Positions 7,392-64,000 of a stretch of 64,000 nucleotides of DNA are shown here, piece by piece. Position 1 is the stretch's first letter. Every line of letters begins with the position of its first letter. The stretch is from Lycium barbarum (taxonomy: Eukaryota > Streptophyta > Magnoliopsida > Solanales > Solanaceae). Made by a program: the position numbers and the translations under genes. Under the pieces are notes generated by a model. The model was not told the origin of the DNA and searched no databases. It saw only the letters and a program-made list of their open reading frames with translations. The stretch is from positions 48,320,950 to 48,384,949 of the forward strand of contig NC_083348.1 of assembly GCF_019175385.1 (NCBI RefSeq), in the 5' to 3' direction.

Positions 7392-7499
7392 AACTGCAAA
7401 TGTAACAATTCGTTAGGGAGGAGTCATCCTGATAACACAGCTCTATCGCACGATCTAAGACAGAAAGAAGGGTAGTATCCTAAATGCCCTGTAGTCTCC

Positions 7500-22838: not shown

Positions 22839-22984
22839 CTATACCCACGACTCTGTCTGCAAAGTCTCTAACATTAATCAGAAATCATAACATATGTACT
22901 CTGACTCGGCAACACTCCGAAAGGAAGTGGAGCTCGCCAATCCAGCTGAAGCATTTTCTAGCAATGTCCTTTACTCATCTAGGT

Positions 22985-23045
22985 GTACCTGCGTGGCATG
23001 AAACACAGCCCCCGAAGAAAGGGGGTCAGTACGGAATATGTACTG
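22985..23045 (-). other. Hairpin cassette copy in B-type LTR
   Basis: In LTR orientation: CAGTAC...GTAC arms, then a five-base C/G stem with a TTTCTTC loop, then a CTG/CAG-type third hairpin. It aligns with the cassettes at 8121, 22295, 26388, 27498, 30042, 40299, 46390, 49860, 57350 and 60767. Confidence 0.75.
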
Positions 23046-25077
23046 AGCATGTAAGGCATAGAATACAGAAAAGAGGATCATAACTGAAACAGAGATTTAC
23101 CAGAATCAAGTATGGCCTTTTAAAACATCAAAGCACTTGCCTTTTGAAATGAAAGTCATGTATGTCATCATCATATCTCATATATACATATTGCGTGCCC
23201 TGGCCCTCTAGTGAGGGACGCGGTGAACAAAATCATGCATGTCAATATCAAGTGTCATATATGCATGTAACGTGCCCCGGCCCTCTATTGAGGGACGCGG
23301 TGAATAAAATCATGTATGCCAATATCATGTATCATATATGCATGTAACGTGCCCCGGCCCTCTATTGCGGGACGCGGTGAATAGAGTCATCATATGCTAT
23401 CCTGGCCGCCATCCCCGTATCATCATATCATATACATACATATAACGTGCCCCGGCCCGCAAGTGAGAGGGACGCGGTGAACAATGCAGTGGAATACGCA
23501 CGAGAACATGTCCTGGCCCAGGACTCAGTGGACGATACTTTAAGGCATGCACGAGTAGAGACGTGAGAGACTATATGCATATAAAACAATTTTTAAGACT
23601 CGATGAATACGTACACAAACGACACTGGAAGGATCGTAAACATGTTTCGAGGCAATCCGAGTTAGTATACGAAAGTTAGGGACATTTTACTACAAAAACC
23701 TCATTGAACGTTTCAGAAGCTATTTTTGAAAAATCAAAGCAATAGTCATATCATGTGGCTTTTTCATATCACTGTGGACCAAATCAAAAAAAATCTTTTG
23801 GAACCATACACACGTATCAAGACATAGCAAAACAGTTTTCAGAAGTCAAGAACGTTAGCCATCCTAGTGGCTCTAAGAATAGGAATTTCTTTGAAATCAT
23901 ACATATACTTTGTCTGTTCGTTTCACAAGGATCATGCCAAAAGAAAGAAAGGGTAAGCCTTACCTATGTGTTCCACGCCTAATTAGCTACGCTTAATTTT
24001 CCAAGCTTGCTAGTCTACATTCAAGAGAATCGACAAAATCATTAGACTCATCGTCATATACTTGTCTTAGTCTTTCAAATGAATTTATTTATGTTCTACC
24101 GAAATTTCGGCAGCATCTCCCCTGTAAATACAGCCATCCCCGAGAATCCAACTCGGCCAATTTATTAACAACAATTCGAGAATTCAACTTGGCCAATTTA
24201 TCAACAACATTACCAACAATCATACTAACAACTTCAACAATCAATCCCAAAATATATTCTAACATTAACAACCCTTGTCACACAATTCGACGACATTTCA
24301 TTTATATTCAATTTGATCACATATAGTCAAGCTAACACCAATGATCTCACATTCAAGTGTTAATCCAAAATCATTCTAACATGGTTCAAGAACACCTTAA
24401 ACAATTCACACGATATTCAAAATAATATAACCAATATGCCATTCCACCCGAAACTTCCAAAGTGCAACAATAACAACAACAACAACAACAACACATTTCC
24501 TTCGTTCAAATTCATGAACTATACCAATAATTCATACACTAACAACATTATTTTCCATAAATACAAGAGACTACATTCAATCCACATTGGCTTCCAAAAC
24601 AGCCCACAACAATTTCAATTCATCAAACCTTCATTTCCATCATGACATCCACATCTATAGCAATCAAAATACTAAATAAAATCAATTCATCATGTCTACA
24701 CAATCACCACCCCTATTCGGCCATCACTTGCACACACATATTTCATGAATTTCATCCATTTCTTCATACTACAACATGCATAAATCATCCCTAACACAAA
24801 TAAAAGAAGATTGAACACATACCTTTTTCTCTTAGCTTCTTAGCTCAGCTAGGGTAGTGAATTGCACAAGTGAATGATTTAATTACTCCAACAACTACTC
24901 CATGCTAATAAGGACCTCTCAATTGCTTGAAATACTAGAAGAAAATATTTTTGATCAATTATTTTTTCCTAGGCTCTTGCTCGGCCAAGCATGGCCGAAT
25001 ATGGCCTCTCTTGTTTTCTCTTCCTTTCTTCAAGTTTCTAGAACTAGAAAAGATGACTAATAAGTCTTGCTTGGTCA

Positions 25078-25874: not shown

Positions 25875-26462
25875 TGTCACGACCCAACCTCGTGGGCCAT
25901 GACTAGTGCCCGAGCTAGACACCCATATGTACCTGTTAAACATAGTCAGACTGATACTATAGGTCCTCAATCAATCACAACGAAATAACATACGCAAGAC
26001 GATGAGGCTGCCACTATATATATATCATTATGCTACGCAAGCCGACAATGATGCCACTACATATCATTATATTACGCAAGCCGACAAGGCTACCACTACG
26101 AAAAGATAACATATGCAAGCCGGCAAGGCTGCTACAACAAAAGAACTTCCACAATAACTATACAGACACAGCTGATCATAATCTGTACACAACCCACACA
26201 CATGTCTATAGACTTTTAAGAGTACTAATAGTGAAATATGACGGGACAGGGCCCCGCCGTACCCCTGGATAAGCATATACATATACATTAGAAGATCTGT
26301 ACTAAAAGTCTAGACTCCGGAACAACGGAGCTCTTTAAGACAACTGAGTAGAAGTCCTATGCTGAAGGATCACCAAACCAACTATCTGTACTTGTGGGCA
26401 TGAAACGCAGCCCCCCGAAGAAAGGGGGTCAGTACAGAATATGTACTAAGTATATAAACTCT
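25875..26462 (-). repeat. 3'-terminal part of an E-type LTR
   Basis: Begins at the plus-strand LTR terminus TGTCACGACCC and includes the hairpin cassette (26388-26448). At about 26455-26465 it passes into gag coding sequence through a short shared string around TAAACTC. This looks like an end-joining deletion that fused gag to the LTR and removed pol. Confidence 0.72.
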
Positions 26463-26882: not shown

Positions 26883-27084
26883 AGCTATAAACACAATAAT
26901 TTTTAGGGAGGTATTATCCTGATAATATAGCTCTATCGCACGATCTAGAGTAAGAAAGAAAATAAACATCCTAAATGTCTTGTAGCTTCCTGTTTATAGA
27001 TGTGGTGCACAACACACCGATAAACAAGACTTTCTAGACACGGTCTATAGACACTCCAAGGATGAACTGCTCTGATACCACTTT
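26883..27084 (-). other. Leader and PBS of the E-type element
   Basis: The PBS TGGTATCAGAGC (minus strand) lies at 27069-27080, four bases inside the LTR end. The leader carries the stem TGTTTAT/ATAAACA with loop hexamer GTGCAC (27005-27010) and the motif GATCGTGCGATAGAGC (26930-26945), both as in element A. Confidence 0.82.
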
Positions 27085-45986: not shown

Positions 45987-48900
45987 TGTCACACCCTAAT
46001 CTTACTTAGGGTGTGATGGGCACCCGGCCCTTATTTAGGGCCGAGCGAACCCGCTGACTCTTATTACATACATAATTTCTTTGAATTCTTAAATCAAATA
46101 AAATGAAATACATAGTAAGGATCTCAGAATCGTTCTTTTCATCGTGCTCAAACTTAGTAAAATCTGTCATCACATAAAACTTGTAACATAACACATAATG
46201 ACGCATCGGCCGGTGGAATCGCTTACAATACCGACATTCTATACCCACGACTCTGTCTGCAAAGTCTCTAACTTCAACCAAGACATCATAGCATAAAACT
46301 CTGACCCGGTAACACTCCAGGGACAAATGGAGCTTGCAAACTTCGCTGGAACATCTTCTATAATGGCTTCTACTCATCTGGCTGTACCTGCGCGGCATGA
46401 AACGCAGCCCCCGAAGAAAGGGGGTCAGTACGAGCAATGTACCGAGCATGTAAGGCATGAATAATAACATACGAGGGGTACATAGCATGAATAAAGACAC
46501 TAAGGAAATGTAGAGCATATCGTGAGATAAAAGAGCAACCTGTACATATGAGTGCCTTTTGGCGGGTACCATGCATGCTTAGTGCTGCGGAACGTGCAGC
46601 CCGATCCATATATATATATTATATTGCTGCAGAACGTGCAGCCCGATCCATTTATATATTATATTGCTGCGGAATGTGCAGCCCGATCCATTTATATATT
46701 ATATTGCTGCGGAACGTGCATCCCGATCCATTTATCCATATATCCCGCGTCCGGGCATCCCGCGTCCGGGACGATTTCATATTATACCAACTGATCAGGT
46801 GGCTATGCGTCTATAGCGCCTCACCTTTCCCCTTACCCCATATACATATATCTTGTTCATGTATCATATACATATACCAAATACATATATCATGTAAGCA
46901 GCATGCAGGAGAGCCCAAAGAATGTTATGTCTCTATCGGAGTGACGTAAGGTCGGTAACCTCCGAATATATTATGGAATAATCATCATGGCATTGTCCCA
47001 CCTTGAAGGAGCAATTATTATAAGATGAGACTGGCAACGAATAACAGCGTTAAGAGGACATAGAATAAGATCATAACCACGTTTCGAGTCAATCCGAGTT
47101 AGTATAAGAAAGTTATGGACATTTTAGTACAAAACCTTCTACGAACGTTTCAGAAGCTATTCTTTTGGAAAACCAAAGCAATAATCATATCAAGTACCTT
47201 TCGAATATCGTTATGGATCAAATCAAATAGAGCTTTTGGAACCATATGTACGTATCAAAATATATCAAAGACTCAATGGAATACTCAAACGTGCTATCAT
47301 TTGAAAATCAAGACACTAGTCATATTACTTATCTCTCGAAAGCCATTCAGAAACATATCAAGTAGACCTTCGGACATCATAGATACGCATCAAAACCATA
47401 TGAAATAGCTTATGGAAGTCAAGAATATTAGCCATCCTAGTGGCTCTAAGAACAGAAATTTCTTTGAAACCATACATATACGTCATCTGCTCGTTTCATA
47501 AGGATCATGCCAAAAGAAAGAAAGGGTAAGCCTTACATACCTGTTCCACGTCCTATTAGCTACGCTTATTTATCCAAGCTTGCTAGTCTACATTCAAAAG
47601 AATTCACACAATCATTAAATTCGTCGTCATACACACTTGTCTTAGTCTTTCAAATAAATTCACTCATGACCTGCCGAAATTTCGGCAGCACTTCCCCTGT
47701 AGATACACCATCCCCGAGAATCTAACTCGGCCAATTTATCAAAACCAATCCGAGAATTCAACTCGGCCAAATTATCAACAACAATATCAACAATCATACT
47801 AACAACTTCATCAATCAATCCAAAATATATTCTAACATGGTTCAAGAACTTTCAAACAATTCACATAATGTTCAAACAACCCAGCCAACATGCCACTTCA
47901 CCCGAAACATTCCAAATTCAACAAGAACGATAACAACACATTTCCTTCTTTCAAATTCAATCACAACAACCCGACTTACAATCTTCCAAACACATGTCTC
48001 CCTTCCAAATTCATGAATTATATTTACAACCTACACATTAACAATATCATTCATACAATATAAGAAACCATACTAATATCACATTAACTTCTTCAACAAT
48101 CCACAAACGATTTCCACTTCATTTCAAACCACTAAATCCTCATTTTATATCATAGAATCTACCACAACAACAATTAAAATACTAAGTAAAATCAATTCAT
48201 CACATCTCACCAATTCAACCCTTATTCGGCCACACCCCTACACACATGTTTCATGAATTTCATCCATTTCTTCACTCTACAACATATACAAACCATCCAC
48301 AACATATAAAAGAGGATCAAACCTTACCTTTTCCACTTAGCTCTTCAACTTGGCTAGAGTTGTGCCTTGCAAGAATGAATGGTTTTATTGCTCCAACAAC
48401 CACTCCATATTAATTAGGGCCTTCAAATTAGTTGGAATACTAGAAGAAAATATTTTTTTGATAAATTTTCCATGGAGCCAAATTTGGCTAGCCATGGCCG
48501 AATAGCCCCTTCTCCTCTTCTCAAGTTTCTTGTGTTGTAAAAAGATGAATAATTCTCTTGCTTTTTCATTACTCATCTCTATATATATATATATATTGCT
48601 TCTACCAACACAAGGTGGACACATGTACCCTTCTCCCTTTTTCTTGAACTTTCTTAAAATAAACAAATATGACCACTTGTCTTGTTATATAAGCTTTGGT
48701 CCATATATATATATATATTTATAATTAGCCCCATTTAATAAAAATATGGACATATGCCACACGGCCAACATGGCCCCTTCAAGAACCTTCTTGAATATTT
48801 TGTGAAATTCCCATTTTGCCCCTAGCTTTCCACAATATTACCATGAACCACTTTGTGAATTTCCCTTTTTACCCTTAGCCTTGCTCAATATTTTCATACT

Positions 48901-49003
48901 AATAAACAACTTGTATATTAAAATAACTTTGGAAAATAGTCTTGCCCTTAACTTACCACGACTACCTTGAAATATCCGAACGTACAAAATACGGGCTATA
49001 ACA
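45987..49003 (-). repeat. 3' LTR of element B
   Basis: Plus-strand TGTCACACCC at 45987 and ...GGGCTATAACA at 49003. A PPT follows on the right, so it is the 3' LTR of an element whose interior extends rightwards. It contains the reverse-strand ACGTTCC hairpin array (46580-46735), a perfect 18-bp palindrome (47671-47688), a GTATGT/GGCATG module near 47505-47545 and a short TA run near 48580. It is inserted in the pol of element F. Confidence 0.88.
46580..46735 (-). repeat. Minisatellite of ACGTTCC-loop hairpins
   Basis: Four units of about 40 bp reading, in LTR sense, GGATCGGGCTGC-ACGTTCC-GCAGC then TA-rich spacer. Orthologous in position to the array at 21757-22040 in another LTR. Confidence 0.88.
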
Positions 49004-52000
49004 TCCTCCCCCCCTTTAGAACATTCGTCCTCGAATGTTCAACTGATCTTATGGGGTCTTGTAACATTTCGGGGGGTGGGGGGTCCCTCTTATATTTGTC
49101 CTTTTCTTCACGCCCATTCCTTACTTTTCACTCTATTTTCTTTATAGTCGAACTCCCCGGTCTTTACGTGAGTCCTCCTTCTGTATCATGGATTTTCTAA
49201 TCCACTGCGCCAATTCATTATCTTTGTCCTTCCCAGGTCATTTCTTCTCTGTTATTGTTTCGTCACAACACCTTAACCAAAGCCACGCTTTGGTACGAAA
49301 TCTTCACTTGATGATCCAGTGTGGCTATAGGTTGTTCCTTGTTCTCATTTTATCTACGGTATTGCAGTCCAGTTACACTTATGGTAACTTATGTTCCGAG
49401 TTCACTTAACTTCTTAGTTTGCAACATCTTTGAGCTCTTGCTACAATATTTTCTTTACCTCTGTCACTACCCAACCCCGTGGGCCGCGACTAGTGTCCGT
49501 GCTGGACACCCGTACGCACCCAATAACCCAAACTAGCATATAAACAAAATATACAGATATAGAAGGCAGTTGGCGTTACTAATTACCACAGATAAACAGA
49601 TATAACGCGGGGAAAGCCGATAAGGCTATCGCAGAACATATCAACCCAAAACATATACACAACCCACATGTATGTCTACAGACCTCTACGGATAATAACA
49701 GAATCATAAGACGGGACAGGGCCCCATCATACCCCTGAATAACATATATATATGTACAATAGAAAAGTCTATACCAAAATATAGGCTCCGGACAAGAGAG
49801 CCCTCCAAGACAGCAGAGTAGAATCCTACGCGGGCGGATCAGCAAATCGGTCGTCTGTACCTGCGTGGCATGAAACGCAGCCCCCGAAGAAAGGGGGTCA
49901 GTACGGAATATGTACTGAGTATGTAAATCCTGGAGTACAATAATAAAATCATAATCGGAACAGAACGTACAGAAAATGAGTGTAATGTCCAGAATATCAA
50001 ATGCATATTTACAAAACATAAATAGTGTATGCAAAAACATATGCCATATCCGGCCCCCGTCAAGGGACTCGGTGAACAAAACGTGGTCGCCACCCCGACA
50101 CTGACGCCACAACACATCATACTCTAGAGTAGGGAATAACTCCGTAACATATCATATCATATCAGATGGCCATATCGTATCATATCATATCATATCAGAA
50201 TAGGCGTACATGGCACAACATACTCCACAACCCATGTATATGTATACTTGCCCCCTCATATCGAGGCACGGCGAACAATGCAGTGGAATACGCTTGATAA
50301 CATATCCTGGCCCGGGCTCAGTGAAGGAAACATTGAGGCATCCACAAGTGGAGTAGTGAGAAACTAAATCCAATATAAAACATAATACATTTACAAAGAC
50401 TCGATGGAATATCTCGATAACAAACCTTAATAATGAAATTGCACGATAATCACAGTGCATGTATTTCGGATACCACAATAGGTTACGTAAAAATAAATTT
50501 TTCTGGAATCGTTTCCATGTTCCAAAATAGTTTATAAGACTCAATGGAATATTTAAAGCAATTGTCGTTTAGTAGTTAGAAGGGTAGTTAAAACGTTCCC
50601 TTTTGAAATCGCTCGAAAATAAGTCAATACACAATACGAGAGGAATCGGGAATAGTGGGCCCACCTCGGGTCAATTGAGGTGGTGGGCTCAAATTATGTA
50701 CATTAAGCTTATGGAGTCATCTATGAAGGCGTTAGGGCAATCCCATATTCTCTTAGGTAATTTATAGACGCCTACACTATTCTTTCAACACAGCTTGAAA
50801 CATGTGATTCAATTCTATTGAATGAAAAAGGGTTAAATTCAAACTCGGATTTCTAGGAATAGAGTCGTTCCCGAGGCTCGTATCCAAACCTATTGTGTCT
50901 AAGACATGCCAAGAGAAGGAAAGGTAAAGCTTTACATACCTTAGTTGCTCCTTACGCTTGTCCAAACTCAATTCCCGTTTCTTCTAGAATCTACAATTGG
51001 TCACAATTACCAATTATAAATTACAAGCCTTTAGGAATTCAATCTTAACTCATACTTGTCTAAAGAAATTTGGGCAGCATCTCCCCTATACATACAACAC
51101 CCCCGAGATTTAACTCGGCTCCAAATGTCAACAACCATACCAACAACAATACCAACAACATCAACAATCGAATTAAAAGGCATTCTAGCATGAATAGTAT
51201 CCTTTTCTACATAGTGCGACAACTTCCAATCTAACTTCGCACTTCCAAACCAATATCAATGTTTTCATATTCATTTACTAATCAAGATCATTCCAATACA
51301 ATTCGGAAGCATTTCATATCATTCTACAAAATATTTACAAAATATATAAAAATTCCACCAAAACCATAATTCATCCGAAACCTATAATCTTCGACATAAA
51401 TATTCATAACACATTTTCATCTTCCAATTTCATTAACAATAATCATAATTCGCACCTTAACAATTCCATTTTCATCATTACATAAATCTACCATAAAATC
51501 ACAAAACTTTCCATAACAACTTAACAACCAATCTTTCATGCCAATATGGACTAGCATCCCTCCAAATTCACCAATCAACATAATAATTCACATTTAGAAC
51601 TCCACTTCCATAATTACATAAAAACTACATTAAAATCACATAACTTCCTATTATCATTTTCAACAATTTTTCATGCCAACTTGAACCATTTTTCTTCCAT
51701 TTCCATCACCAGGCTTCAACAACACAATTAACATAATAAATAAAATTTTAATCATCCCTCTTCACCAACACTATTTTCGGCCACACATGCACATACCCAT
51801 AACACACAATTTTCACACTTTACATTCCTTTCCACATTCTACAACACATATATATATTTCTTTCAAGACAAAAGGAATAAAATCTTACCTCTTTCTTCTT
51901 AGCTCCTTCACTTGTCAAAAATTTTAAACCGACGAAACAAGCAGTCTATCTTCCGAAACAACTATACCACGTTGTAGAGGGTTCTTGAATTAGTAGGAAT

Positions 52001-54361
52001 ACCACAAGAAAATAATTTTTGGAACAAAATTTCAAGGGGTGAAATTTATGGGGTATGGCCGAATGGCCTTTAATGTTTTTGCTCTTCTTCTTTTGTTTTT
52101 CTCCTTCTCTTATTTCTTGAATCTTCTAAAGTTAATGATCCTTTCTTATATAATTTATCACATGGAAAAATAAATAAATCATATGGGCTTGGGCCATGTA
52201 TGGCCGGCCACCCCTCACATTTGGGCCTTATTTTCTCTTATTATTTTTTTTGAGCCCAATTGGTTATGAATCTTGTTTTGTAATTCCCGAACTAATTTCC
52301 AAAATTCCAATTTTGCCCTTGGCCTTCCTTAATATTTCCACATTAATATTTCATGAACAACACACATATATTAATTAAAATCAACATGACCTTATTTCTT
52401 TCAAGCCCAAATTATTTCAAATTTTTCCAAATAGACAAAAACACGGGATATAACAACCTCCTTCCCTCATATCTCTCGACACGAGTATACTTGTCTTTGA
52501 TTTCTTCATATTAGCAACCACTTCGTCAGTCATTATTCCATGTTAGCTCTCCGGTGTGGACTTCTTACAATTATAATTTGGCATAGCTTCACGTTAACAG
52601 TTCATATAATTCCATAGCGTATACCCTCATGTCTGCCTCATGGTACACTTATAGTCATTTCGCTTCTACTTCTTTCGGGTATCCTTCTGATGTGCCGATA
52701 TGCTTTGAACTCTGGCTCCGAGCTAATAATTTTTCCTTTTCTTGAGCCTGAAAATGGTGTGATTCCTTTTAGGCCTAATATAATATGTTTTTCCCCCCTT
52801 TTGAGGGGCTCCTTATACGCCAACAGCCTCCGAGTACCCTCGTCTACAGTAATTACCTTATTCCTCGTCTTTCTTTCCAACTCTGTGCATATCATATCGA
52901 AACTTCTTACCATAAGTTTTTCTTTCATTTTTTATGACCATATCATCACTTTGTCAACATTGCCATACCCTTCCATCCACCATTAGTCCCTTTCACCCAT
53001 TTGGCTCACTTAATCGTAGTTCTTCTTTAACTACGCGTTTGTATTGCAGCTGTGCGTCCATATTTTTCGAGCGTCCCGCTACTTTTGCTCGCAGCACAGA
53101 ATCCTTACAGTTCACACTCTCTCTAGCCTCGCTCATCGGACCTTTAACTATATTTATGATGTTATGACCGAGCGGTTTCCCACGTGCGTTCCTTTCACTT
53201 CATTCTATTTCCTCTAAGATCAAATCTTTCAGACCTCACATGAATTCTCATTCCATACCATTAATTTCTCAATCAACAGTGTCGACCCATCACCCTTGTT
53301 CCTTCCTCAATGCGTAATCAGGTTCCTACCGCCAACTCGTTAAGGTATCCTTTTTGCTCCCATATGTTCTTTCTATTCCTTCGACTTACCCGTTAGTATA
53401 CTATTCTTACTTTCATCCTTAACCTTCCTTGGGTTTCTTCTTCCTCGGGCACTTTTCTTTCTCTTTTTATCTGTAGTATCGTCTATAAAGTTCGTGAAAT
53501 ATTCCTTTAAATGCACAAATCTGTTCTATTCTTAAGTCATCCTTTCAGGAAGGCTCCTCCATGTCCGAGGCAACCACATCAATATGGCTACACATTTATC
53601 CCTTTACATACCTTTCAAGGGCCTAAATCTCCTAGCATCGTCGCAAGGCCTAAGCATTCTTTCTCTTACCTCACGTTCCTTGTCGCAATCACTATTCTCT
53701 TAGCCCCACTTATTAAAATTGGTTCTCGAACCTGACACATTCCTCTTTTGTTCCATATTACCACACTTTATCCTCTTCACGCGCCTATCTTTGAGTTTTT
53801 ACCCAAGTAGTCTCGTGCTTTGCCGGTAGTTTCTTTCAGGGGGGTTTCACTCACCCAGGTTTCTTACCTTTTACCCTTTTTCCGACATTTTGATCTCCTT
53901 GCCTTCTATTTTCTCACTCTCCTTATTTTCCAAATATAGTTGTATTAGAACTTTCCAATCTTAACCTGTAGTGAACATAACATCAACTTACCTTATAATA
54001 CTTGTACCATATCTTTTCTTGTTACTTGAACTTCGGTGCCCTTGCTCGATTGAGGCCTCCCATACCGTAACACCGGTTGCTGGGATACACATGCCCACCG
54101 ATACAATCACATATGGGATATCATACGCATTCATATATATATATATATATATATATAATTACTATCAACTAGCCCACAAAGTACTTCCAAACGCTATTCA
54201 AGCCTATCCTAATTCCAGAGCTGTGATGCACTCTCTGTCTCTTCACCAGTCCAATCTGCCTCGTCCTACACAACCTCTTATGGTCTCCAGGCACCCCGTA
54301 TACTCTAGTTCCTTATTTGCCTCAATTTATAGGACTTTTAGTTCACTTCCCAGGGGGTCAC
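49004..54361 (-). mobile_element. Element B internal region, non-coding, interrupted
   Basis: Begins with a PPT (49004-49018) and the AACATTCG/CGAATGTT hairpin (49019-49041). It continues as purine-rich (minus strand) non-coding sequence, split by a solo LTR at 49462-52455. No gag or pol motif is visible. One open frame at 52638-52928 (minus) has no recognisable domain and is not called as a gene. A TA run lies near 54135-54157. Its far end holds a piece of a 5S-rRNA-like sequence at the G junction. Probably a non-autonomous, large-derivative type element. Confidence 0.75.
49462..52455 (-). mobile_element. A-type solo LTR with target duplication ACCTC
   Basis: Plus-strand TGTCACTACCC start and GGGATATAACA end, about 2.99 kb, matching the element A LTR family. 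ACCTC flanks it at 49457-49461 and 52456-52460. No internal region. The hairpin cassette lies at about 49785-49920. Confidence 0.94.
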
Positions 54362-54362
54362 C
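54344..54362 (-). ncRNA. Tail of a 5S-rRNA-like sequence in element B
   Basis: The minus strand reads GGTGACCCCCTGGGAAGT, the same as 61693-61710 in element G and matching the end of the intermediate element plus box C of plant 5S rRNA. The similarity continues downstream in both elements (CTAAAAGT.CTATAAAT). The upstream part is missing because element G is inserted exactly here; it should resume beyond the far end of G, outside the window. Confidence 0.72.
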
Positions 54363-57300
54363 TTTATATCCCGTATTTTATGTATTCGGATAATTCAGGA
54401 TAATTACGGGAAGTTAAGGGCGAGGCTATATTTTTGACCTTGTTTAGCACACAAGTTGTTCATGAAAGTTTTGATGTGGAAATGTTAAGAAAGGCTAGGG
54501 GCAAAAAGGGAAATTCGCAAGATGGCTCATAGAAAATACGGAGGAAGGCCAAGGGAAATATTGAAATTTGGAAAAATAAATTTTCATGAATTACAAAACA
54601 AAAAAAAAAGATTGGGCTTGGATAATTTCGGCCAAAGTGGCCGGCTATGTTGAAGTGGGCCAAGGCCCACATGGAATTAAAATAAATAAGACCCAAAGGA
54701 TGACTTAATGGTCATACTTTTCATCTTCATCTTTTGGAAATTTCATGAAACTTGGAGAGGAAACATGGAGAGGGCCATTCGGTCATAGAGCAAGAAAAAG
54801 GAACCCTTGGAAATCTTGATCAAAAAAAATATTTTCTTCAAACATTCCTACTAATTTGAAGGTCCTCTTTAACGTGGTATAATTGTTGGAGCTAGTAGAC
54901 CCCTCCTTGTGGCAAGTTCATAATTATAGCCAAGTGAGAAGTTAAGGGAAAAAGGTAAGAATTAATCTTCTTTTATATGTTGTGGATGGTTGTGTATGTT
55001 GAAATATGTGGAAATTCATGAAATTTGGTGTGTTGGTGTTTGGCCGTGTATATGCTATGTGTGGCCGTGTATGTGTTGTATTGTGTAGGGATGATGAACT
55101 AATTTTATCTAGTATTTTTGTTGTTGTTGTAATGGAATCTATGATGAAAATGAAAGTTTAATGATCCTAGTGGAGTTGTAATGGTTGGAGAGTTGTTTTA
55201 GAAGTTAATCTGATTTGACTATAGTCTTCTTGCATTTATGGAAGATAATGTTGCTAATGTGTAGATTGTTGGTGCAGTTTATGAAATTGAAAGAAGGAAA
55301 TATGTTGTTATTGGTCTTGTTGAGTTTGGAAGGTTTCGGGTGAAGTAGTATGTTGGTTGGGTTGTTTGAATGTTGTGTGAATTGTTTGAAGTGTTCTTGA
55401 GTCATGTTAGAATGATTCCGAATTAACACTTGGATATGAGATCATTGGTGTTAGCATGATTATATGTGGTTGAATTGAATATAAATGGGATGTTGTCGAA
55501 TTATGTAGAAGAAAGTTACTAACGTTAGAATGCGTCTTAAGTTGATTGTTGAAGTTGTTAGTATGATTGTTGGTATTGTTGTTGATAATTTGGCCGAGTT
55601 GAATTCTCGGATTGTTGTTGATAATTTGGCCGATTTGGATTCTCGGGGATGGTTGTATTTACAGGCGAAATGCTGCCGAAATTTTGGCAGAATATAAATG
55701 AATTCATTTGAAGGACTAAGACAAGCATATGTCGATGAGTCTAATGATTATGTCAATTCTCTTGAATGTAGACTAGCAAGTTTTGACGAATAAGCGTAGC
55801 TAATTGGACGTGGGACAGGTATGTAAGGCTTACCCTTTCTTTCTTTTAGCATGTCCTAGAGCTGAGTAAGGTATGATACGTATCTTGGGGTAACTCTATT
55901 CTTGATTCCGAGCTTGTTAATGATTATTATTCACTTCTTGATGTGAGTATACTTAGTATAGCCGAGCTTATTGTATGATTGAATAACAAGAAAAGTCTAA
56001 AGAGTTCTATAAGTAGTACTGTTTATAAATTTCATAAGCGAACTCGGATTGTTTTAGAAACGTTCGTAGAGGTTTCTATAATGAATAACGTTCCTAACCT
56101 TCATAGGCTAACTCGGATTGTTTTGGAAACGTAGCGTAACGATATCCATAATGAATCCATTCCTAGATGTAGGATATCCTGAGTTCTTTGACCTCTTAAG
56201 CCCGAAGGGGCATTCTCAGGTTGTGCGATTTCATAATGTTGTCTAAATCCCGAAGGGGACGTTCATAAGGTCTTTCTCTTAACTATGCATTTTACATTTA
56301 AATTTGTGAGTCTCGAAGGAGACAAATGAAAAGGGTTTGATTGCATACATGACGTCCATAATAGTTTTTTTTTTCTAGATGATTTCATGACGCGACTGAG
56401 CGTGCTATATAACGTATGGCCTCGGCTTAATTCTGAGTGTGTTATGGCCTCAGCTGATCACTAAGTGCGCGGCCTCAGCTTATGTTTGAGCGTGCTGTAT
56501 AACATATGGCCTCAGTTTACGTTATGCCAATTGAGTTGTGCATATGGTTTCACTAATAATTTCGAGGAAATTAGTTTTATACTAAAGGAAACATAAAGTT
56601 AGATTTGAATAATGTCCATAACTTTCTTATGCTAACTCGGATTGACTTGAAATGTGTTTATGATTTTACTAATGATTTCGAGAAAACTAGTTTTATACTA
56701 AAGGAAATATAAAGTTTGATTTCCAAAACCATTCCGAAGGGGGTGCGAGATTTTACTATTTAGACTTTCAAAACCACTCCGAATGGGGTGCGAGATTTTA
56801 CTAATTAATTTTTCAAAACCACTCTGAACGGGGTGCGAGGTCTTACCTTTTTCATTCCATTTACGACTTATGTTTACATTTCATGCCATCATTTTTATTA
56901 TTATGCCCGAAGGGGCCAGGGTAATATTATGTCAGGACCGGCATGCCCGAAGGGGCCAGGGTAGTATTATGCCGGGACCGGCATGCCCAAAGGGGCCATC
57001 ATTATTATTTTGCCGGAAGCGGCTGCCTGAAGGGGCCATCATTATTATTATGCCGGAAGCGGCTGCCTGAAGGGGCCATCATTATTATTATGCCGGAAGC
57101 GGCTGCCCGAAGGGGCTATCATTATTATTGAGCCGGAAGCGGCCGTCCGAAGGGACTGTTGTGATATTATATTTATACTGTGAGTTCTAGATTTTGTGTA
57201 TGCTGTGTTTATATTGTGTATGCTAGAAATTGTGCAAAGTACTATATGGCATGGTTCGAAATGTTGTTCCAGGTACTCCCGGGTTGCTTCTAAACTTGCT

Positions 57301-57807
57301 TACTGTTATGCTTCTCCTTGTTTATGATTCAGTAATGCTTTACATATTCAGTACATATTCCGTACTGACCCCCTTTCTTCGGGGGCTGTGTTTCATGCCA
57401 CGCAAGTACACCCAGATGAGTAGAAGAATTTACTAGAAGGTGTTCCAGTGGGATTGGCGAGCTCCATCTCAGTTCGGAGTATTGCCAAGTCAAGTACTGT
57501 TGTTATGGTATTTTGTATATGTTAGAGACTTTGCAGACAGTGTCCTGTGGATAGGGCGTCGAGAAGTGCGGTCATTTGTAGATGAAAAAAAATATGTATT
57601 TTCATATAATTCCAGTTGGTTCAAAGTAAGCAATTGATTGAAAGTTTTTCATACTCTGTATAAAGATAATGATCTCTACTTGGAAAAAACTCCATGTGTT
57701 AAAAGTTTTTGAAATGACAGGTTTTGGTAAAGCAAATGTTTAAGGGCTCGCTCGACTCTGAAGAGAGTCGGGTGCCCATCATGCCCTAGCAATATGAGGG
57801 TGTGACA
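54362..57807 (+). repeat. 5' LTR of element G
   Basis: Starts CTTTATATCCCG, where TG has decayed, and ends GGGTGTGACA next to the PBS. It includes TGGGCC-AA-GGCCCA (54657-54670), a GTATGT/GGCATG module (55816-55854), a decayed 18-bp palindrome near 55672, GAAG-loop hairpins (56190-57160) and the hairpin cassette (about 57350-57410). Confidence 0.9.
56190..57160 (+). repeat. GAAG-loop hairpin region with minisatellite core
   Basis: The core at 56883-57160 has about seven 40-bp units with hairpins such as GCCC-GAAG-GGGC and GCCG-GAAG-CGGC plus ATTATTATTATG spacers. Looser copies upstream include TCCC-GAAG-GGGA (about 56250) and GTCTC-GAAG-GAGAC (56309-56322). The loop is constant while both arms change together. 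Confidence 0.85.
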
Positions 57808-57810
57808 AAG

Positions 57811-57822
57811 TGGTATCAGAAC
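57811..57822 (+). other. Primer binding site of element G
   Basis: TGGTATCAGAAC three bases after the LTR end, one mismatch from the initiator tRNA-Met complement TGGTATCAGAGC. Confidence 0.88.
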
Positions 57823-57910
57823 AGGTCGTCTTAGGGGTTGTCTACAAAGTCGTGTCTAGTACAGTCTTGTTTATCGGTGTCTTGTGCAGGAGGCTACGAG
57901 ACATTAATAG
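57823..57910 (+). other. Element G leader with half of the dimer-type stem-loop
   Basis: AGTCTTGTTTATCGGTGT (from about 57863) and TTGTGCA match the first half of the element A leader hairpin in RNA sense. The second half (CACACC...ATAAACA arms) is missing and the text goes straight to GGAGGCTACGAGACATT. The stem-loop is therefore broken in this copy. Confidence 0.65.
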
Positions 57911-60900
57911 TGTTATAACCCGTATTTTGTACGTTCGGATAATTCGAGATAATTGCGAAAAGTCAAGGCAAGACTATCTTCCAAACTATTTCAATAAACA
58001 ATTTATTTATTAGTATGGACATATTAAGAAAGGCTAAGGGTAAAAAGGGAAAGTCGCAAGATGGTTCATAGAAATATTGCGGAAGGCTAAGGGCAAATTT
58101 GGAAATTCGGAAAATAAATTTTCATGAATTACAAAAAAAAAAAATGGGCTTGGCTAATTTGGGCCAAGGTGGCCGGCCATGTGGGGTGGCCCAAGGCCCA
58201 CATGGAGGCCTAATATATATATTCCCAAAAGATGACTAATTAGTCACAATTTTCATTCCTAATATTTGGAAATAGAAGAAGCTTGGAGAAGACTCCAAAC
58301 AAGGGCCATATTCGGCCAAGAGAGGAGAAAAATTGGAGCCTCCAAATTTGATCCAAAAAAATATTTTCTTCTAGTATTCCTACTAATTCAAAGGTCCTCT
58401 TTAACGTGGTATAATTGTTGGAGCAAGAGAACCACTATTTGTTGCAAGTTCATAATTCTAGACAAAAGAGAAATCAAGGTAAAAAGGTAAGAATTAATTT
58501 CCTTTTATATGTTATGAATGGTTGTGTATGTTGTTGTGTGTAGAAATGGGTAAAATTCATGAGATATGTATATGTGTGTCATGGCCGAATAGGGTGTGTT
58601 GTGTGGAGAAGATGAGATGATTTTATTTAGTAGTTTGATTGTTGCGTTGTGGATTCCATGATGTGAAATGAATGAAAACCATGAATTTAGTGTGTTGGAA
58701 TGGTGGCCGTATGTGTGTGTTGTGTTGTATAGGGATGATGAATTAATTTTACTTAGTATGTTAGTTGTGTTGTTGTGGATTCTATATTGCAAATGAAGGA
58801 TTAATGATTCAAGTTGAAGTTATACGTGTTGGAAAGTCATTTTAGAAGCTAATAGGACTATAATATTACTTTTTGTATTTATGGAAAATAATGTTGTTAG
58901 CATGTGAATTGTTGGTTTAGTTCATGCATTGGGAAGACGAAAATGTATTGTGGTTGTTTTGTTGCATTCGGAAGGTTTTGGGTGATGTAATATGTTGATT
59001 GGGTTGTTGGAATATTATGTGAATTGTTAGGAGTATTCTTGAAACATGTTAGAAAGATTTCAGATGAATACTTGAATATATGTGATTGAATTGGATATAA
59101 ATGAAATGCCGTGAATTGTGTGACAAGAGTTGTTGATGTTAGAATATGTTTTGGGATTGATTGTTGAAGTTGTTAGTATGATTGTTGGCAATGTTGTTAA
59201 TAATTTGGCCGAGTTGAATTCTCGAATTGTTGATTGTTGATTTGGCCGAGTTAGATTCTCAGGGATGGTGTATTTAAAGGGGAAATGCTGCCGAAATTTC
59301 GGCAGATTATAAGTGAGTTTACTTGAAAGATTAAGACAAGTGTGTGAAAATATGTCTGATGATTTTGTAAACCTCCTTGAATGTACACTAACGAGCTTGG
59401 ACGAATAAACGTAGCCAAAAGGACGTGGAGCAGGTATGTAAGGCTTACCCTTTCTTTCTTTTGGCATGATCTTTATAAAACGAGCAAACGACGTATATGT
59501 CTGATTTCAAAGAAATCTCCTATTGTTAGAGCCGCTAGGATGGCTAATGTTTTTGACTTCCATGAGTTGTCTCATATGGTTTGATGTATATCTATGATGT
59601 CCGAAGTTTGTTGACATGTTTCCAAATGGCATTCGAAAAAAAATAAATTGATATGAATAAAGTTTTGATTTTCAAACGCTAGCACGTTCGATTATTCCAT
59701 CGAGTCTTTGATATATTTTGGTATGTGCATATGGTTCCAAAAAACTCTATTTGATTTGATCCATAACGATATCCGAAAGGTACTTGACATAATTATGGCT
59801 TTGTCTTTCCAAAAATGGCATTTGAAACGATTGTAGAACGTTCTGTACTTCAAACGTTCATAACTTTCGTATATTAATTTAGATTGACCCGAAACTTGTT
59901 TCTGAGCCTTCAAGGGTCGGAAAGTATACTTATCCATCGAGTCTTGATTTATGTGCATATGGTTTCTCATTACTCTGCTCGTGAATATTACTCTTATATC
60001 GTTCGCCGAGTCCCGGGCCGGTATATCTCGTGCGCATGGTTCGCCGGGTCTCTTGCTTGAGGGTCGGGTGCCATTTATGTATTCCGGAGTATGATGTGTT
60101 ACGGTGTTATGATGTGTTCATGGTTTGCCGAACCATATATGTGTATATGTATATTATGATCTTATGATGTGATATTATGATGTGTGACGGAGATTACGGA
60201 GCAAACCTTCTGGAGTATGATGTGTGTGGCACGAAAGGCAGGGTGGCGCCACGTTCCCCGGGTCCCGTAAGGGGCTGGATACCGTTCTTGGCATGCATGA
60301 TTCGTGTTTCCAGTAAGTGTTTTTATTATTCTGCATATCGTGCTTAAAGTCTGTACTAACCCTCTGCACGTGCCACAACAATGTAATATGTGTATATGGA
60401 TCAGGCTGCACGTTCCGCAGCAAATACATTTGTGGATCGGGCCGAACGTTCCTCGACACTAATATGATATATACGTGGATCGGGTCGTACGTTCCTCGGC
60501 ACTATTATGTAACATATGAATCAGTTATGTGTATATGTATATGATGGCATACGCTGTTGGCACGCACGGTCTGTGTTTGGAAAGTACGCATTTTGGCACT
60601 CTGAATGATCTACTTATTTTCTGTACTTCTTCTAATTCATGACATCGGTATACACGATTTGCATTCTAAAAGAAAATAGTATTTTGGTATTTTGAAAATG
60701 TACTTACTTTTGTACTGCTTGTTTCGATTATGGTTCTGTTTTCTGTGTTCCCTGCTTTACATACTCAGTACATATTCCGTACTGACCCCCTTTTCTTCGG
60801 GGGCTGCGTTTCATGCCACGCAGGTAGACCCAGATGAGTAAATGACACCGTTAGAAGATGCTTCAGCTGGATTGACGAGCTCCACTTCCTTTCGGAGCGT

Positions 60901-61232
60901 TTGCCGAGTCGAAGTTTGTGTGATATGATTTCTGATCGGGGTTAGAGACTTTGCAGACAGAGTCGTGGGTATGGAATGTCAGTTTTGTAAGTGGCTCTAT
61001 CAGCCGATATGTCATTCTGTGTTATGTCATAAATTCTACATGATTCAGATTTTGTTTGATTTGAAAATAACGATGAAAAGGAATATTTCAGAAACACTGT
61101 ACTATGTATTTCATCTTTGGCTGATTTAAAAGTCCCAAAAAGGATTATGTGTGCATTAAGGGTCTGAGGGTTCACTCGGCCCAAAGTAAGGGTCAGGTGC
61201 CCATCACACCCTAGGGAGATTAGGGTGTGACA
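57911..61232 (+). mobile_element. Solo LTR with target duplication AATAG
   Basis: Starts TGTTATAACCCGTATTTTG and ends TTAGGGTGTGACA. AATAG flanks it at 57906-57910 and 61233-61237. It is inserted in the leader of element G. It carries TGGCCC-AA-GGCCCA (58187-58200), a perfect 18-bp palindrome (59288-59305), a GTATGT/GGCATG module (59431-59469), ACGTTCC-loop hairpins (60393-60505) and the hairpin cassette (60767-60827). Confidence 0.95.
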
Positions 61233-61237
61233 AATAG

Positions 61238-61607
61238 GGTGTCATCCTTTCTTTCATGTCTAAGATCGTGCGATAGAGCCCAGTTGTAGGAAATGAAGTC
61301 CCTTGTACTAACCATTGATTTCAGCTGAAGGATGACATCGACAGAAGGAAGCGACCGATGACATTAGCAGTTACAGAGTGCAGTGGCAAGTAACGGTACG
61401 GAAGAGGCATGTTGGACAAGGTAAGAATATTGGAATCTGATTGAAATGTAAAGTTGGGGGAATGAAAGTGAAGGTAAATATTAGGGGTTCTTTTCGAAAA
61501 GGCTAAATTAGTAATTGTTAAGGAGAAAGACGTGTTACGAGGATGTCTCAGAATCTGTAAGACTTCGACTTGCTCCAGATCATGTAATAGAGGTCACGCG
61601 AAGAAGT
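61238..61607 (+). other. Element G interior, first part
   Basis: Contains GATCGTGCGATAGAGC (61264-61279), the leader motif shared with elements A and E, then TACTAACCATTGATTTCAG (61306-61324), which resembles a branch point and 3' splice site. No coding frame follows. Confidence 0.6.
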
Positions 61608-61716
61608 GGATGCGATTATATTGGCATTAATGCATTGGATTTCACCGAAGTTTCAAGGTTAAGCGTGCTGGGACAAGAGAAATTTTGGGATGGGTGACCC
61701 CCTGGGAAGTGTGCTA
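61608..61716 (+). ncRNA. 5S-rRNA-like sequence inside element G
   Basis: Starts GGATGCGATTATA and aligns along its length with plant 5S rRNA as I know it. The Pol III internal control regions are well kept: box A GTTAAGCGTGCT (61659-61670), intermediate element GATGGGTGACC (61689-61699) and box C CCTGGGAAGT (61701-61710). The 5' half has diverged, mostly by C-to-T changes, and the last 5S bases are lost, so it is not a normal 5S gene. It lies in sense orientation in the internal region. Cassandra TRIM elements carry 5S sequence, but in their LTRs. No T-run terminator directly follows. Confidence 0.86.
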
Positions 61717-61983
61717 AAAGTTCTATAAATGTAGATATAAGAGACAAATAGGAAGAACATGTGGGAGTACGAAGGACAAGGATAATAAGTTGGCGCAGTT
61801 GATTAGAAAACCCATGACATGGAATGAGGATACATGTGAAGACCGAGGAGTTCGATTATAAAGAAAACAGGGTGAAAGATAAGGAATGGACATGAAGGAA
61901 AGGACAACTATAAGAGAGACCCCCCTCCCGAAGTGTTATAACAGCCCTATAAGGCCAGTTGAACATTCGAGGACGAATGTTCT
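61717..61983 (+). other. Element G interior, last part
   Basis: Purine-rich and non-coding. It shares CTAAAAGT-CTATAAAT just after the 5S-like part with element B. It ends with the inverted repeat ACATTCG-AGGA-CGAATGT (61963-61980) before the PPT. Confidence 0.6.
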
Positions 61984-62007
61984 AAAGGGGGGGGGGGGGG
62001 GGGAGGA
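61984..62007 (+). other. Polypurine tract of element G, with expanded G run
   Basis: AAA, then a run of about 17 G, then AGGA, directly before the LTR start. Other PPTs here have six to eight G, so this one is expanded. Confidence 0.88.
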
Positions 62008-64000
62008 TGTTATATCCCGTATTTTGCGCATTCGGTTAATTCAAGATAATTGCGAGAAGTTAAGGGAAAGGCTATATTTTTGACCTCTTTTAGCACACAA
62101 GTTGTTCATGAATGTTTTGATGTGGAAATGTTAAGAAAGGCTAGGGGCGAAAAGGGAAATTCGCAAGATGGCTCATAGAAAATACGGAGGAAGGCCAAGG
62201 GCAAAATTGGAATTTGGAAAAATAAATTTTCATGAATTACAAAACAAAAAAAAAAGATTGGGCTTGGATAATTTGGGCCAAAGTGTCCGGCCATGTTGAA
62301 GTGGGCCAAGGCCCACATGGAATTAAAATAAATAAGACCCAAAGGATGACTTAATGGTCATACGTTTCATCTTCATGTTTTGGAAATTTCAAGAAACTTG
62401 GAGAGGAAACATGGAGAGGGCCATTCGGCCATAGAGCAAGAAAAAGGAACCCTTGGAAATCTTGATCAAAAAAAATATTTTCTTCAAGCATTCCTACTAA
62501 TTTGAAGGTCCTCTTTAACGTGGTATAATTGTTGGAGCAAGTAGACCCGTCCTTGTGGCAAGTTCATAATTATAGCCAAGTGAGAAGGTAAGGGAAAAAG
62601 GTAAGAATTAATCTTCTTTTATATGTTGTGGATGGTTGTGTATGTTGTAGTATGTGGAAATTCATGAAATTTGGTGTGTTGGTGTTTGGCCGTGTATATG
62701 CTATGTGTGGCTGTGTATGTGTTGTATTGTGTAGGGATGATGAACTAATTTTATATAGTATTTTGGTTGTTGTTGTAATGGAATCTATGATGAAAATGAA
62801 AGTTTAATGATCCTAGTGGAGTTGTAATGGTTGGAGAGTAGTTTTAGAAGTTAATGTGATTTCACTATAGTCTTCTTGCATTTATGGTAGATAATGTTGC
62901 TAATGTGTAGATTGTTGGTGTAGTTTATGAAATTGAAAGAAGAAAATATGTTGTTATTGTTCTTGTTGAGTTTGGAAGGTTTCGAGTGAAGTAGTATGTT
63001 GGTTAGGTTGTTTGAATGTTGTGTGAATTGTTTGAAGTGTTCTTCAGTCATGTTAGAATGATTCCGAATTAACACTTGGATATGAGATCATTGGTGTTAG
63101 CTTGATTATATGTGGTTGAATTGAATATAAATGGGATGTTGTCGAATTATGTAGAAGAAAGTTACTAACGTTAGAATGCGTCTTGAGTTGATTGTTGAAG
63201 TTGTTAGTATGATTGTTGGTATTGTTGTTGATAATTTGGCCGAGTTGAATTCTCGGATTGTTGTTGATAATTTGATCGAGTTGGATTCTCGGGGATAGTT
63301 GTATTTACAGGGGAAATGCTGCCGAAATTTCGGCAGAATATAAATGAATTCATTTGAAGGACTAAGACAAGCATATGTCGATGAGTCTAATGATTATGTC
63401 AATTCTCTTGAATGTAGACTAGCAAGTTTGGACGAATAAGCGTAGCTAATTGGACGTGGGACAGGTATGTAAGGCTTACCCTTTCTTTCTTTTGGCATGT
63501 CCTAGAGCTGAGTAAGGTATGATACGTATCTTGGGGTAACTCTATTCTTGATTCCGAGCTTGTTAATGATTATTATTCACTTCTTGATGTGAGTATACTT
63601 AGTATAGCCGAGCTTATTGTATGATTGAATAACAAGAAAATTCTAAAGAGTTCTATAAGTAGTAATGTTCATAAATTTCATAAGCGAACTCGGATTGTTT
63701 TAGAAACGTTCGTAGAGGTTTCTATAATGAATAACGTTCCTAACCTTCATAGGCTAACTCGGATTGTTTTGGAAACGTAGTGTAACGATATCCATGATGA
63801 ATCCATTCCTAGATGTAGGATATCCTGAGTTCTTTGACCTCTTAAGCCCGAAGGGACATCCAATGTTGTCTAAATCCCGAAGGGGACGTTCATAAGGTCT
63901 TTCTCTTAACTATGCATTTTACATTTAAATTTGTGAGTCTCGAAGGAGACAAATGAAAAGGGTTTTATTGCATACATGACGTCAATAATAGTTTTTTTTC
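62008..64000 (+). repeat. 3' LTR of element G, truncated by window end
   Basis: Starts TGTTATATCCCGTATTTTGC and matches 54362-56380 throughout. It contains TGGGCC-AA-GGCCCA (62302-62315), a perfect 18-bp palindrome (63319-63336) and the GTATGT/GGCATG module (63461-63500). Confidence 0.92.

What the first reader, a model, noticed from the sequence alone, without database searches (positions are those of the whole stretch)
61608..61716. 5S-rRNA-like sequence with conserved Pol III boxes inside a non-coding gypsy-type element
Box A, intermediate element and box C of 5S rRNA are nearly unchanged, while the 5' half shows mainly C-to-T changes. The known plant precedent, Cassandra, carries 5S sequence within short LTRs; here it sits in the internal region of an element with 3.4-kb LTRs. 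The kept internal promoter suggests selection for Pol III or TFIIIA binding, or simply descent from a captured 5S gene or 5S-derived SINE.
Basis: partly seen in the sequence, partly recalled or inferred. Interest (0 to 1): 0.88.

Follow-up and report, generated by a model that had tools for sequence, protein, structure and literature searches.

The report
5S rRNA fragment inside plant retrotransposon
A jumping gene in a plant genome has a piece of the 5S ribosomal RNA gene where its protein genes should be, and a second, distantly related element beside it carries part of the same piece, so the fragment appears to be an inherited part of the element.

Summary
Window 61608-61710 (+) aligns without gaps to plant 5S rRNA positions 1-103, with 27 differences (E about 1e-13 in 64 kb). 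It scores 27.8 bits against Rfam 5S, below the 38-bit gathering score. It lies inside an 873-bp non-coding interior of a gypsy-type element, G, with 3.4-kb LTRs, PBS and purine tract; a solo LTR with a 5-bp target duplication later inserted there. The interior's two ends match the leader and 3' end of chromodomain-type elements, so a 467-bp cargo containing the 5S piece stands where gag-pol should be. New here: G appears inserted in the 5S-like segment of a second element, M, on the other strand. M keeps 19 letters identical to G across box C, plus flank (43 of 51), although the aligned LTR parts are only about 60% alike. The segment is therefore probably a heritable component of a non-autonomous lineage. 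Evidence for function is thin: boxes mildly spared (P 0.02-0.03), pairing marginal (P 0.04), predicted fold not 5S-like, and a TTTT between IE and box C. It meets neither the Cassandra definition (5S in short LTRs) nor that of a SINE. No plant genome could be searched.

The parts
61608..61710 (+). 5S-like segment, equals plant 5S positions 1-103, sense relative to element G
   Evidence: nhmmer E 1.9e-14, ungapped, 27 of 103 differ; Rfam RF00001 27.8 bits, below gathering 38
61657..61671 (+). box A equivalent (5S 50-64; coordinates recalled)
   Evidence: 2 of 15 changed
61674..61679 (+). intermediate element equivalent (5S 67-72; coordinates recalled)
   Evidence: 1 of 6 changed
61687..61704 (+). 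box C equivalent (5S 80-97; coordinates recalled)
   Evidence: 2 of 18 changed
61683..61686 (+). TTTT inside the 5S-like segment, a potential Pol III stop ahead of box C
   Evidence: a TTTT arises in 31% of spectrum-matched simulations, so unremarkable by chance
54363..57807 (+). 5' LTR of element G (one base apparently deleted at LTR position 2)
   Evidence: 96% over 2009 columns to 62010-64000; ends AGGGTGTGACA; junction letters
57811..57822 (+). primer binding site of G, TGGTATCAGAAC (tRNA-iMet type, recalled)
57808..57910 (+). leader of G, first part, up to the solo LTR
   Evidence: G interior 1-169 is 71.5% identical to 27083-26905 (-), and 1-157 is 71.1% identical to 7593-7427 (-)
57911..61232 (+). 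solo LTR of a related family inserted in G's interior
   Evidence: TG..CA ends, 5-bp target duplication AATAG at 57906-57910 and 61233-61237, 71% and 67% to G's LTR in two stretches
61238..61303 (+). leader of G, second part, ends shortly before where gag would start
   Evidence: the match stops 23 nt (at 26905) and 36 nt (at 7427) before the gag start codons of the two relatives
61304..61770 (+). 467-bp cargo standing in place of gag-pol, contains the 5S-like segment
   Evidence: no match to the gag/pol pieces of the 2.4-7.6 kb element by tblastn; no Pfam match reaching its cut-off in 6 of the 9 open stretches listed; no other copy of 61304-61607 in the window
61771..62007 (+). 3' internal part and purine tract (61984-62007) of G
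   Evidence: 84% over 229 columns to 49232-49005 (-), which follows an integrase chromodomain remnant
62008..64000 (+). 3' LTR of G, cut by the window end
54345..54362 (-). truncated second 5S-like segment (box C part) of element M, cut at G's 5' LTR
   Evidence: 19 of 19 letters equal to G including the next base; match continues to 54312, 43 of 51; nhmmer E 6.3e-6 with G's segment plus 60 nt flank; against plant 5S alone only E 2.5
52456..54362 (-). 3' part of the internal region of element M, no gag/pol match
   Evidence: matches G's interior in three stretches; tblastn with gag/pol pieces gave none
49462..52455 (-). 3' LTR of element M, about 60% identical to G's LTR over 1712 columns
49004..49461 (-). 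remnant interior of element N (integrase chromodomain end, 3' region), no 5S-like segment found
   Evidence: tblastn 60% over 40 aa, E 3.5e-10

Best explanation
A fragment of a 5S rRNA gene or transcript (positions 1-103) was captured, in sense orientation, into a chromovirus-type gypsy element as part of a 467-bp non-coding cargo that stands in place of gag-pol. The resulting non-autonomous element keeps LTRs, PBS, leader, 3' region and purine tract, and would be copied in trans by autonomous relatives of the kind whose stop-interrupted remains are also present in this window. Shown: homology to 5S, anatomy, absence of gag-pol, and presence of part of the same segment in a second divergent element (M). 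Inferred: that the capture predates the G-M split (exchange by recombination is not excluded), trans-mobilisation, and capture by template switching or recombination. Most likely the segment is now mainly inherited cargo, perhaps with weak constraint on its TFIIIA-contact boxes. This copy is probably not a working Pol III gene.
For: 5S homology with controls. G anatomy: LTR pair, PBS, purine tract, solo LTR with TSD. Leader and 3' region shared with coding-type elements, no gag-pol match between them. The coding-type element at 2.4-7.6 kb has gag, protease, RT, RNase H, integrase zinc-binding and SH3 matches above cut-off, and integrase core and chromodomain matches just under theirs. Second copy in M, also sense with respect to its own element. 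G's LTRs differ by K2P 0.031 over 1989 sites while the 5S part differs from 5S by 27/103, so most change preceded G's insertion. Internal TTTT and missing 3' end argue against a complete Pol III gene.
Against: Only two copies were seen, and M keeps just 18 nt of 5S. Boxes are spared more than the rest (P 0.020 Fisher; 0.028 spectrum-matched) and 20 of 21 scored 5S base pairs still pair in G (permutation P 0.043), which pure passive cargo would not predict. No genome-wide copies could be checked.
Confidence: 0.72

Rival explanations
1. The segment is kept by selection as a DNA-level module: TFIIIA/TFIIIC binding at box A-IE-C gives the element Pol III factor recruitment (start site, open chromatin or boundary), as proposed for Cassandra's promoter. 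This shares the origin part of the best explanation, so the odds need not sum to one.
For: 5 of 39 box positions changed against 22 of 64 outside. Many changes in the 3' half fall between boxes, as reported for Cassandra's MotIE and MotC (PMC10853983 section 16). Box C is identical between G and M over 19 letters while aligned LTR parts are about 60% and a 3' internal stretch 67% alike.
Against: TTTT between IE and box C; 3' end and terminator absent; P values modest and box coordinates recalled; an LTR-driven RNA of about 4 kb (inferred) would not need a Pol III start.
Confidence: 0.2
2. It acts as RNA: a 5S mimic in the element's genomic RNA that binds ribosomal protein L5 or TFIIIA, comparable in principle to the 5S mimic exon of plant TFIIIA pre-mRNA.
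For: Seven of 21 scored 5S pairs changed and all seven still pair, including two double changes CG to TA (29-48, 34-41); permutation P 0.043. Both copies are sense with respect to their element. Precedent: 5S mimic in TFIIIA pre-mRNA bound by L5 (passage in PMC5972288).
Against: Minimum-energy fold is not 5S-like and no better than shuffles (z +0.61). Energy on the 5S structure P 0.095, MFE P 0.60. Helix I lost its 3' strand.
Confidence: 0.08
3. A 5S-derived SINE or a Cassandra solo LTR inserted into the element.
For: 5S-derived SINEs and Cassandra exist; the segment begins at the first base of 5S.
Against: No flanking direct repeat of 7 nt or more in the stretch tested, no A-rich tail seen. 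Non-5S flank downstream is shared with M. The segment carries the first 30 nt of 5S; Cassandra's shared core is about 70 bp around the boxes in the LTR middle, though some species exceed 100 nt (PMC10853983).
Confidence: 0.07

Closest known systems
Cassandra (plant TRIM, 5S in LTR)
   Same: Non-autonomous LTR element of plants with 5S-derived sequence; boxes spared, inter-box stretches variable (PMC10853983)
   Different: Cassandra has the 5S unit in the middle of short LTRs and totals about 600-900 bp; here it is in the interior of an element with 3.4-kb LTRs, with 5S positions 1-103, and as cargo in place of gag-pol
Ajax (nemertean TRIM, 5S in LTR)
   Same: Capture of 5S sequence by an LTR element, held by its author to be independent of Cassandra (PMC10886601)
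   Different: 421-434 bp, 5S in LTRs, animal
Chromovirus-type gypsy elements (Tekay/Del-like, lineage name recalled, not tested)
   Same: Leader, PBS type, 3' internal region, purine tract and LTR start shared with coding-type copies in the window
   Different: No gag-pol; 467-bp non-coding cargo with 5S
Large non-autonomous retrotransposon derivatives (LARD type, recalled)
   Same: Long LTRs, non-coding interior, presumed trans-mobilisation
   Different: Interior only 873 bp and carries a recognisable rRNA fragment
5S mimic exon of plant TFIIIA
   Same: 5S-like sequence placed inside another transcript (PMC5972288, passage)
   Different: Gene exon with a reported splicing role; not a mobile element

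Membership tests
Cassandra | 5S-derived unit located within both LTRs | tested here: not met
   5S-like unit at 61608-61710 is between LTRs 54363-57807 and 62008-; in the LTR parts visible nhmmer gave only chance-level hits (E 6.2 and worse)
Cassandra | Small element (about 600-900 bp, LTR 200-400 bp) | tested here: not met
   LTR 3445 bp, interior 873 bp; size range from a passage of PMC10853983
Cassandra | Conserved box A, IE and box C with variable stretches between | tested here: met
   5 of 39 box positions changed; changes at 66, 73, 75, 77, 78 lie between boxes
5S-derived SINE (SINE3) | 5S head plus body, A-rich or simple tail, target-site duplication | tested here: not met
   no direct repeat of 7 nt or more flanking; no tail seen; downstream flank shared with M
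Gypsy LTR retrotransposon, chromovirus-related, non-autonomous | LTR pair, PBS, purine tract | tested here: met
Gypsy LTR retrotransposon, chromovirus-related, non-autonomous | Internal ends derived from chromodomain-type elements, no gag-pol | tested here: met
   Chromo scored 24.6 bits, just under its cut-off of 25.1
Gypsy LTR retrotransposon, chromovirus-related, non-autonomous | 5-bp target duplication around G itself | not testable with these tools
   G's right end lies beyond the window; the genome search did not complete
Functional 5S/Pol III gene | Full 5S, gathering-level covariance score, T-run terminator after the gene and none inside | tested here: not met
   27.8 vs 38 bits; TTTT inside at 61683, next at 62022
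TFIIIA 5S mimic exon | Lies in a TFIIIA gene | tested here: not met
   no zinc-finger or other Pfam match reaching its cut-off in the 6 open stretches tested; sequence comparison with a real mimic exon not done

The most novel reading that the evidence does not exclude
A lineage of long-LTR chromovirus-type elements has traded gag-pol for a 5S-derived module that it keeps under selection as a cis signal, bound as DNA by TFIIIA/TFIIIC or as RNA by TFIIIA/L5, so that 5S capture would have occurred outside LTRs and independently of Cassandra, for a purpose other than driving full-length Pol III transcription.
Probability: 0.2. Interest if true: 0.75.

Novelty: new variant of a known kind. Interest (0 to 1): 0.52.

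Why it matters
5S capture by plant LTR elements is described for short LTRs (Cassandra). A heritable 5S fragment in the interior of a long-LTR gypsy lineage, in place of its genes, would show that 5S modules are recruited more than once and in more than one position. It offers a natural comparison for asking what the 5S boxes do for a retroelement: here the Pol III unit looks damaged while the boxes are still somewhat spared. It may also account for sub-threshold '5S' matches in such genomes.

Tried and rejected
Searches for further copies. Exact patterns of the G-M shared stretch, of box C (two forms), of box A-IE and of the purine-tract motif gave 0 loci in each of five viral contigs pattern scans, and the first two patterns gave 0 in both genome-contig scans. 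These collections hold viruses and prokaryotes, so this says nothing about plants. A pol query against viral contigs gave no confirmed locus. A 79-aa reading frame across the segment found no protein relative.

Third copy within the window: none found. Further nhmmer hits beyond G and M had E above 4 with G's own segments and 5.5 or worse with plant 5S.

RNA structure as a strong argument: rejected as a headline. Pair retention P 0.043, but energy on the 5S structure P 0.095 and MFE no better than null or shuffles. One loop column of the Rfam structure line was dropped to fit the plant length.

TTTT as evidence of counter-selection: rejected; it arises in 31% of spectrum-matched simulations.

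A start at exactly +1 as evidence for RNA-level capture: rejected, because homology outside the 5S gene would not be recognisable anyway.

Literature: ten answered searches, judged from titles and abstract openings of the listed papers plus passages or sections of five papers (PMC10853983, PMC10886601, PMC7076952, PMC6444444, PMC5972288), showed no report of 5S sequence in the interior of a long-LTR gypsy element. The library lacks most subscription papers, so absence from print is not claimed.

Full report
1. Is it there? The stretch 61608-61710 (+) aligns without a gap to positions 1-103 of plant 5S rRNA; 27 letters differ. The probe was recalled, so it was checked with the Rfam consensus printed: the same place is the best hit in the window (E 0.0018, over 61645-61708), against E 3.3e-13 for the recalled plant 5S. 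The lowest best E of 25 dinucleotide shuffles was 1.5, and the reversed probe gave 4.4. The covariance model scores 27.8 bits, below its gathering score of 38. So homology is secure, but it is not an intact 5S gene.

2. Anatomy of the host element (G). 5' LTR 54363-57807, PBS 57811-57822, purine tract 61984-62007, 3' LTR from 62008, cut by the window end. The LTRs differ by K2P 0.031 over 1989 compared sites, which is 1.2-2.4 My at recalled rates of 1.3e-8 to 6.5e-9. A solo LTR of a related family (57911-61232) sits in the interior with target duplication AATAG on both sides. Without it the interior is 873 bp. Its first 169 bp match leaders of coding-type elements (71%), and the match stops 23 nt before the likely gag start codon of the relative at 26.9 kb and 36 nt before that of the relative at 7.4 kb. 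Both of those frames begin MPPKKATAAQ, and the first matches the second's gag piece further on (65% over 46 aa, E 2e-14). G's last part (61771 on) matches the 3' end of element N at 84%, beginning where N's translated match to the integrase chromodomain ends, with 9 nt overlap. What lies between is 467 bp with no gag-pol match by tblastn to the pieces of one coding-type element and no Pfam match reaching its cut-off in the 6 of 9 listed open stretches tested. The 5S-like segment lies in it, at interior positions 474-576, sense. The coding-type element at 2.4-7.6 kb is itself interrupted by in-frame stops; no intact helper was identified in the window.

3. A second copy. Directly left of G's 5' LTR, on the minus strand, lie 19 letters identical to G's box C region, and the match runs on through non-5S flank to 43 of 51 (nhmmer E 6.3e-6; against plant 5S alone the 18 nt give only E 2.5). 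This belongs to element M: interior 54362-52456 (-), LTR 52455-49462 (-). M shares two further interior stretches with G (67% over 132 columns, 75.5% over 49) and shows no gag-pol match in what is visible. G thus appears inserted in M's 5S-like segment, and M appears to lie in the integrase part of N. The G-M LTR identity is about 60% over 1712 columns, apart from a 72-nt island at 96%. Sharing of 5S plus non-5S flank between such divergent elements means that the segment, already trimmed at its 3' end, was probably present in their common ancestor, unless it was exchanged by recombination.

4. Is it under selection? For: 5 of 39 box positions changed against 22 of 64 others (Fisher P 0.020; spectrum-matched permutation P 0.028). 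Box C is identical between G and M where a G-M interior stretch is 67% alike; by hand, 0.67 to the 19th power is about 5e-4, but the alignment end was not chosen independently, and at the 84% of the whole 51-column stretch the figure is only about 0.04. 20 of the 21 scored 5S pairs pair in G, as in 5S, with two double changes (P 0.043). Against: predicted fold not 5S-like, z +0.61; energy on the 5S structure P 0.095 and MFE P 0.60; TTTT at 61683-61686 between IE and box C, next at 62022; helix I lacks its 3' strand. The two halves of the segment differ in amount of change only at P 0.075. The C>T excess (11 of 25 C, against G>A at 5 of 31 G) runs with the C-poor sense strand of the element (C 13-15% in G's LTR and interior, 21% in the coding-type element), so it needs no special cause. 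Several tests were made and none is strong.

5. Reading. A captured 5S fragment is part of the non-coding cargo of a non-autonomous chromovirus-type lineage. Capture by template switching or recombination and copying in trans are inferred. Whether boxes are used is open; I put about 0.2 on DNA-level use and 0.08 on RNA-level use.

6. Known relatives. Cassandra (PMC10853983; passages and sections 14, 16 and 21 seen) and Ajax (PMC10886601; abstract and discussion seen) carry 5S in short LTRs. Neither definition is met here. Box conservation with variable inter-box motifs is like Cassandra. The 5S mimic of TFIIIA (one passage in PMC5972288) is a precedent for 5S-like RNA in another transcript. 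The organism is a flowering plant by its elements (inferred): among the 120 best hits listed for a pol piece, the closest that names a plant is Solanum tuberosum at 70%, while unnamed records reach 83-84%.

7. Limits. No plant genome could be searched: the genome search was unreachable in 13 of 13 requests, and the open collections hold viruses and prokaryotes. Carriers seen are G and M; the elements of the window were not all classified, so no carrier fraction is given. A window-wide scan found no further 5S-like segment, so N and the coding-type element show none.

Noticed in passing
57303-57492 (+), 60721-60901 (+), 8100-8196, 22963-23059, 26366-26462, 46362-46458, 49835-49931 (all -): LTRs of several elements share an island (72 nt at 96% between M and G, whose LTRs are otherwise about 60% alike) that by eye spells two small hairpins in a row, one with a CCCCC..GGGGG stem; a conserved LTR RNA or DNA signal is likely.
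   Followed up: partly
45987-64000: Apparent four-deep nesting: M in N's integrase part, G in M's 5S-like segment, a solo LTR in G; only the solo LTR has both flanks in the window.
   Followed up: partly
61984-62007: Unusually long purine tract of G with 17 consecutive G before the 3' LTR, against 7 in N.
   Followed up: no
hit P0002: A protein filed under a Corynebacterium assembly is 82% identical to the plant pol piece, which looks like plant contamination of a bacterial record.
   Followed up: no
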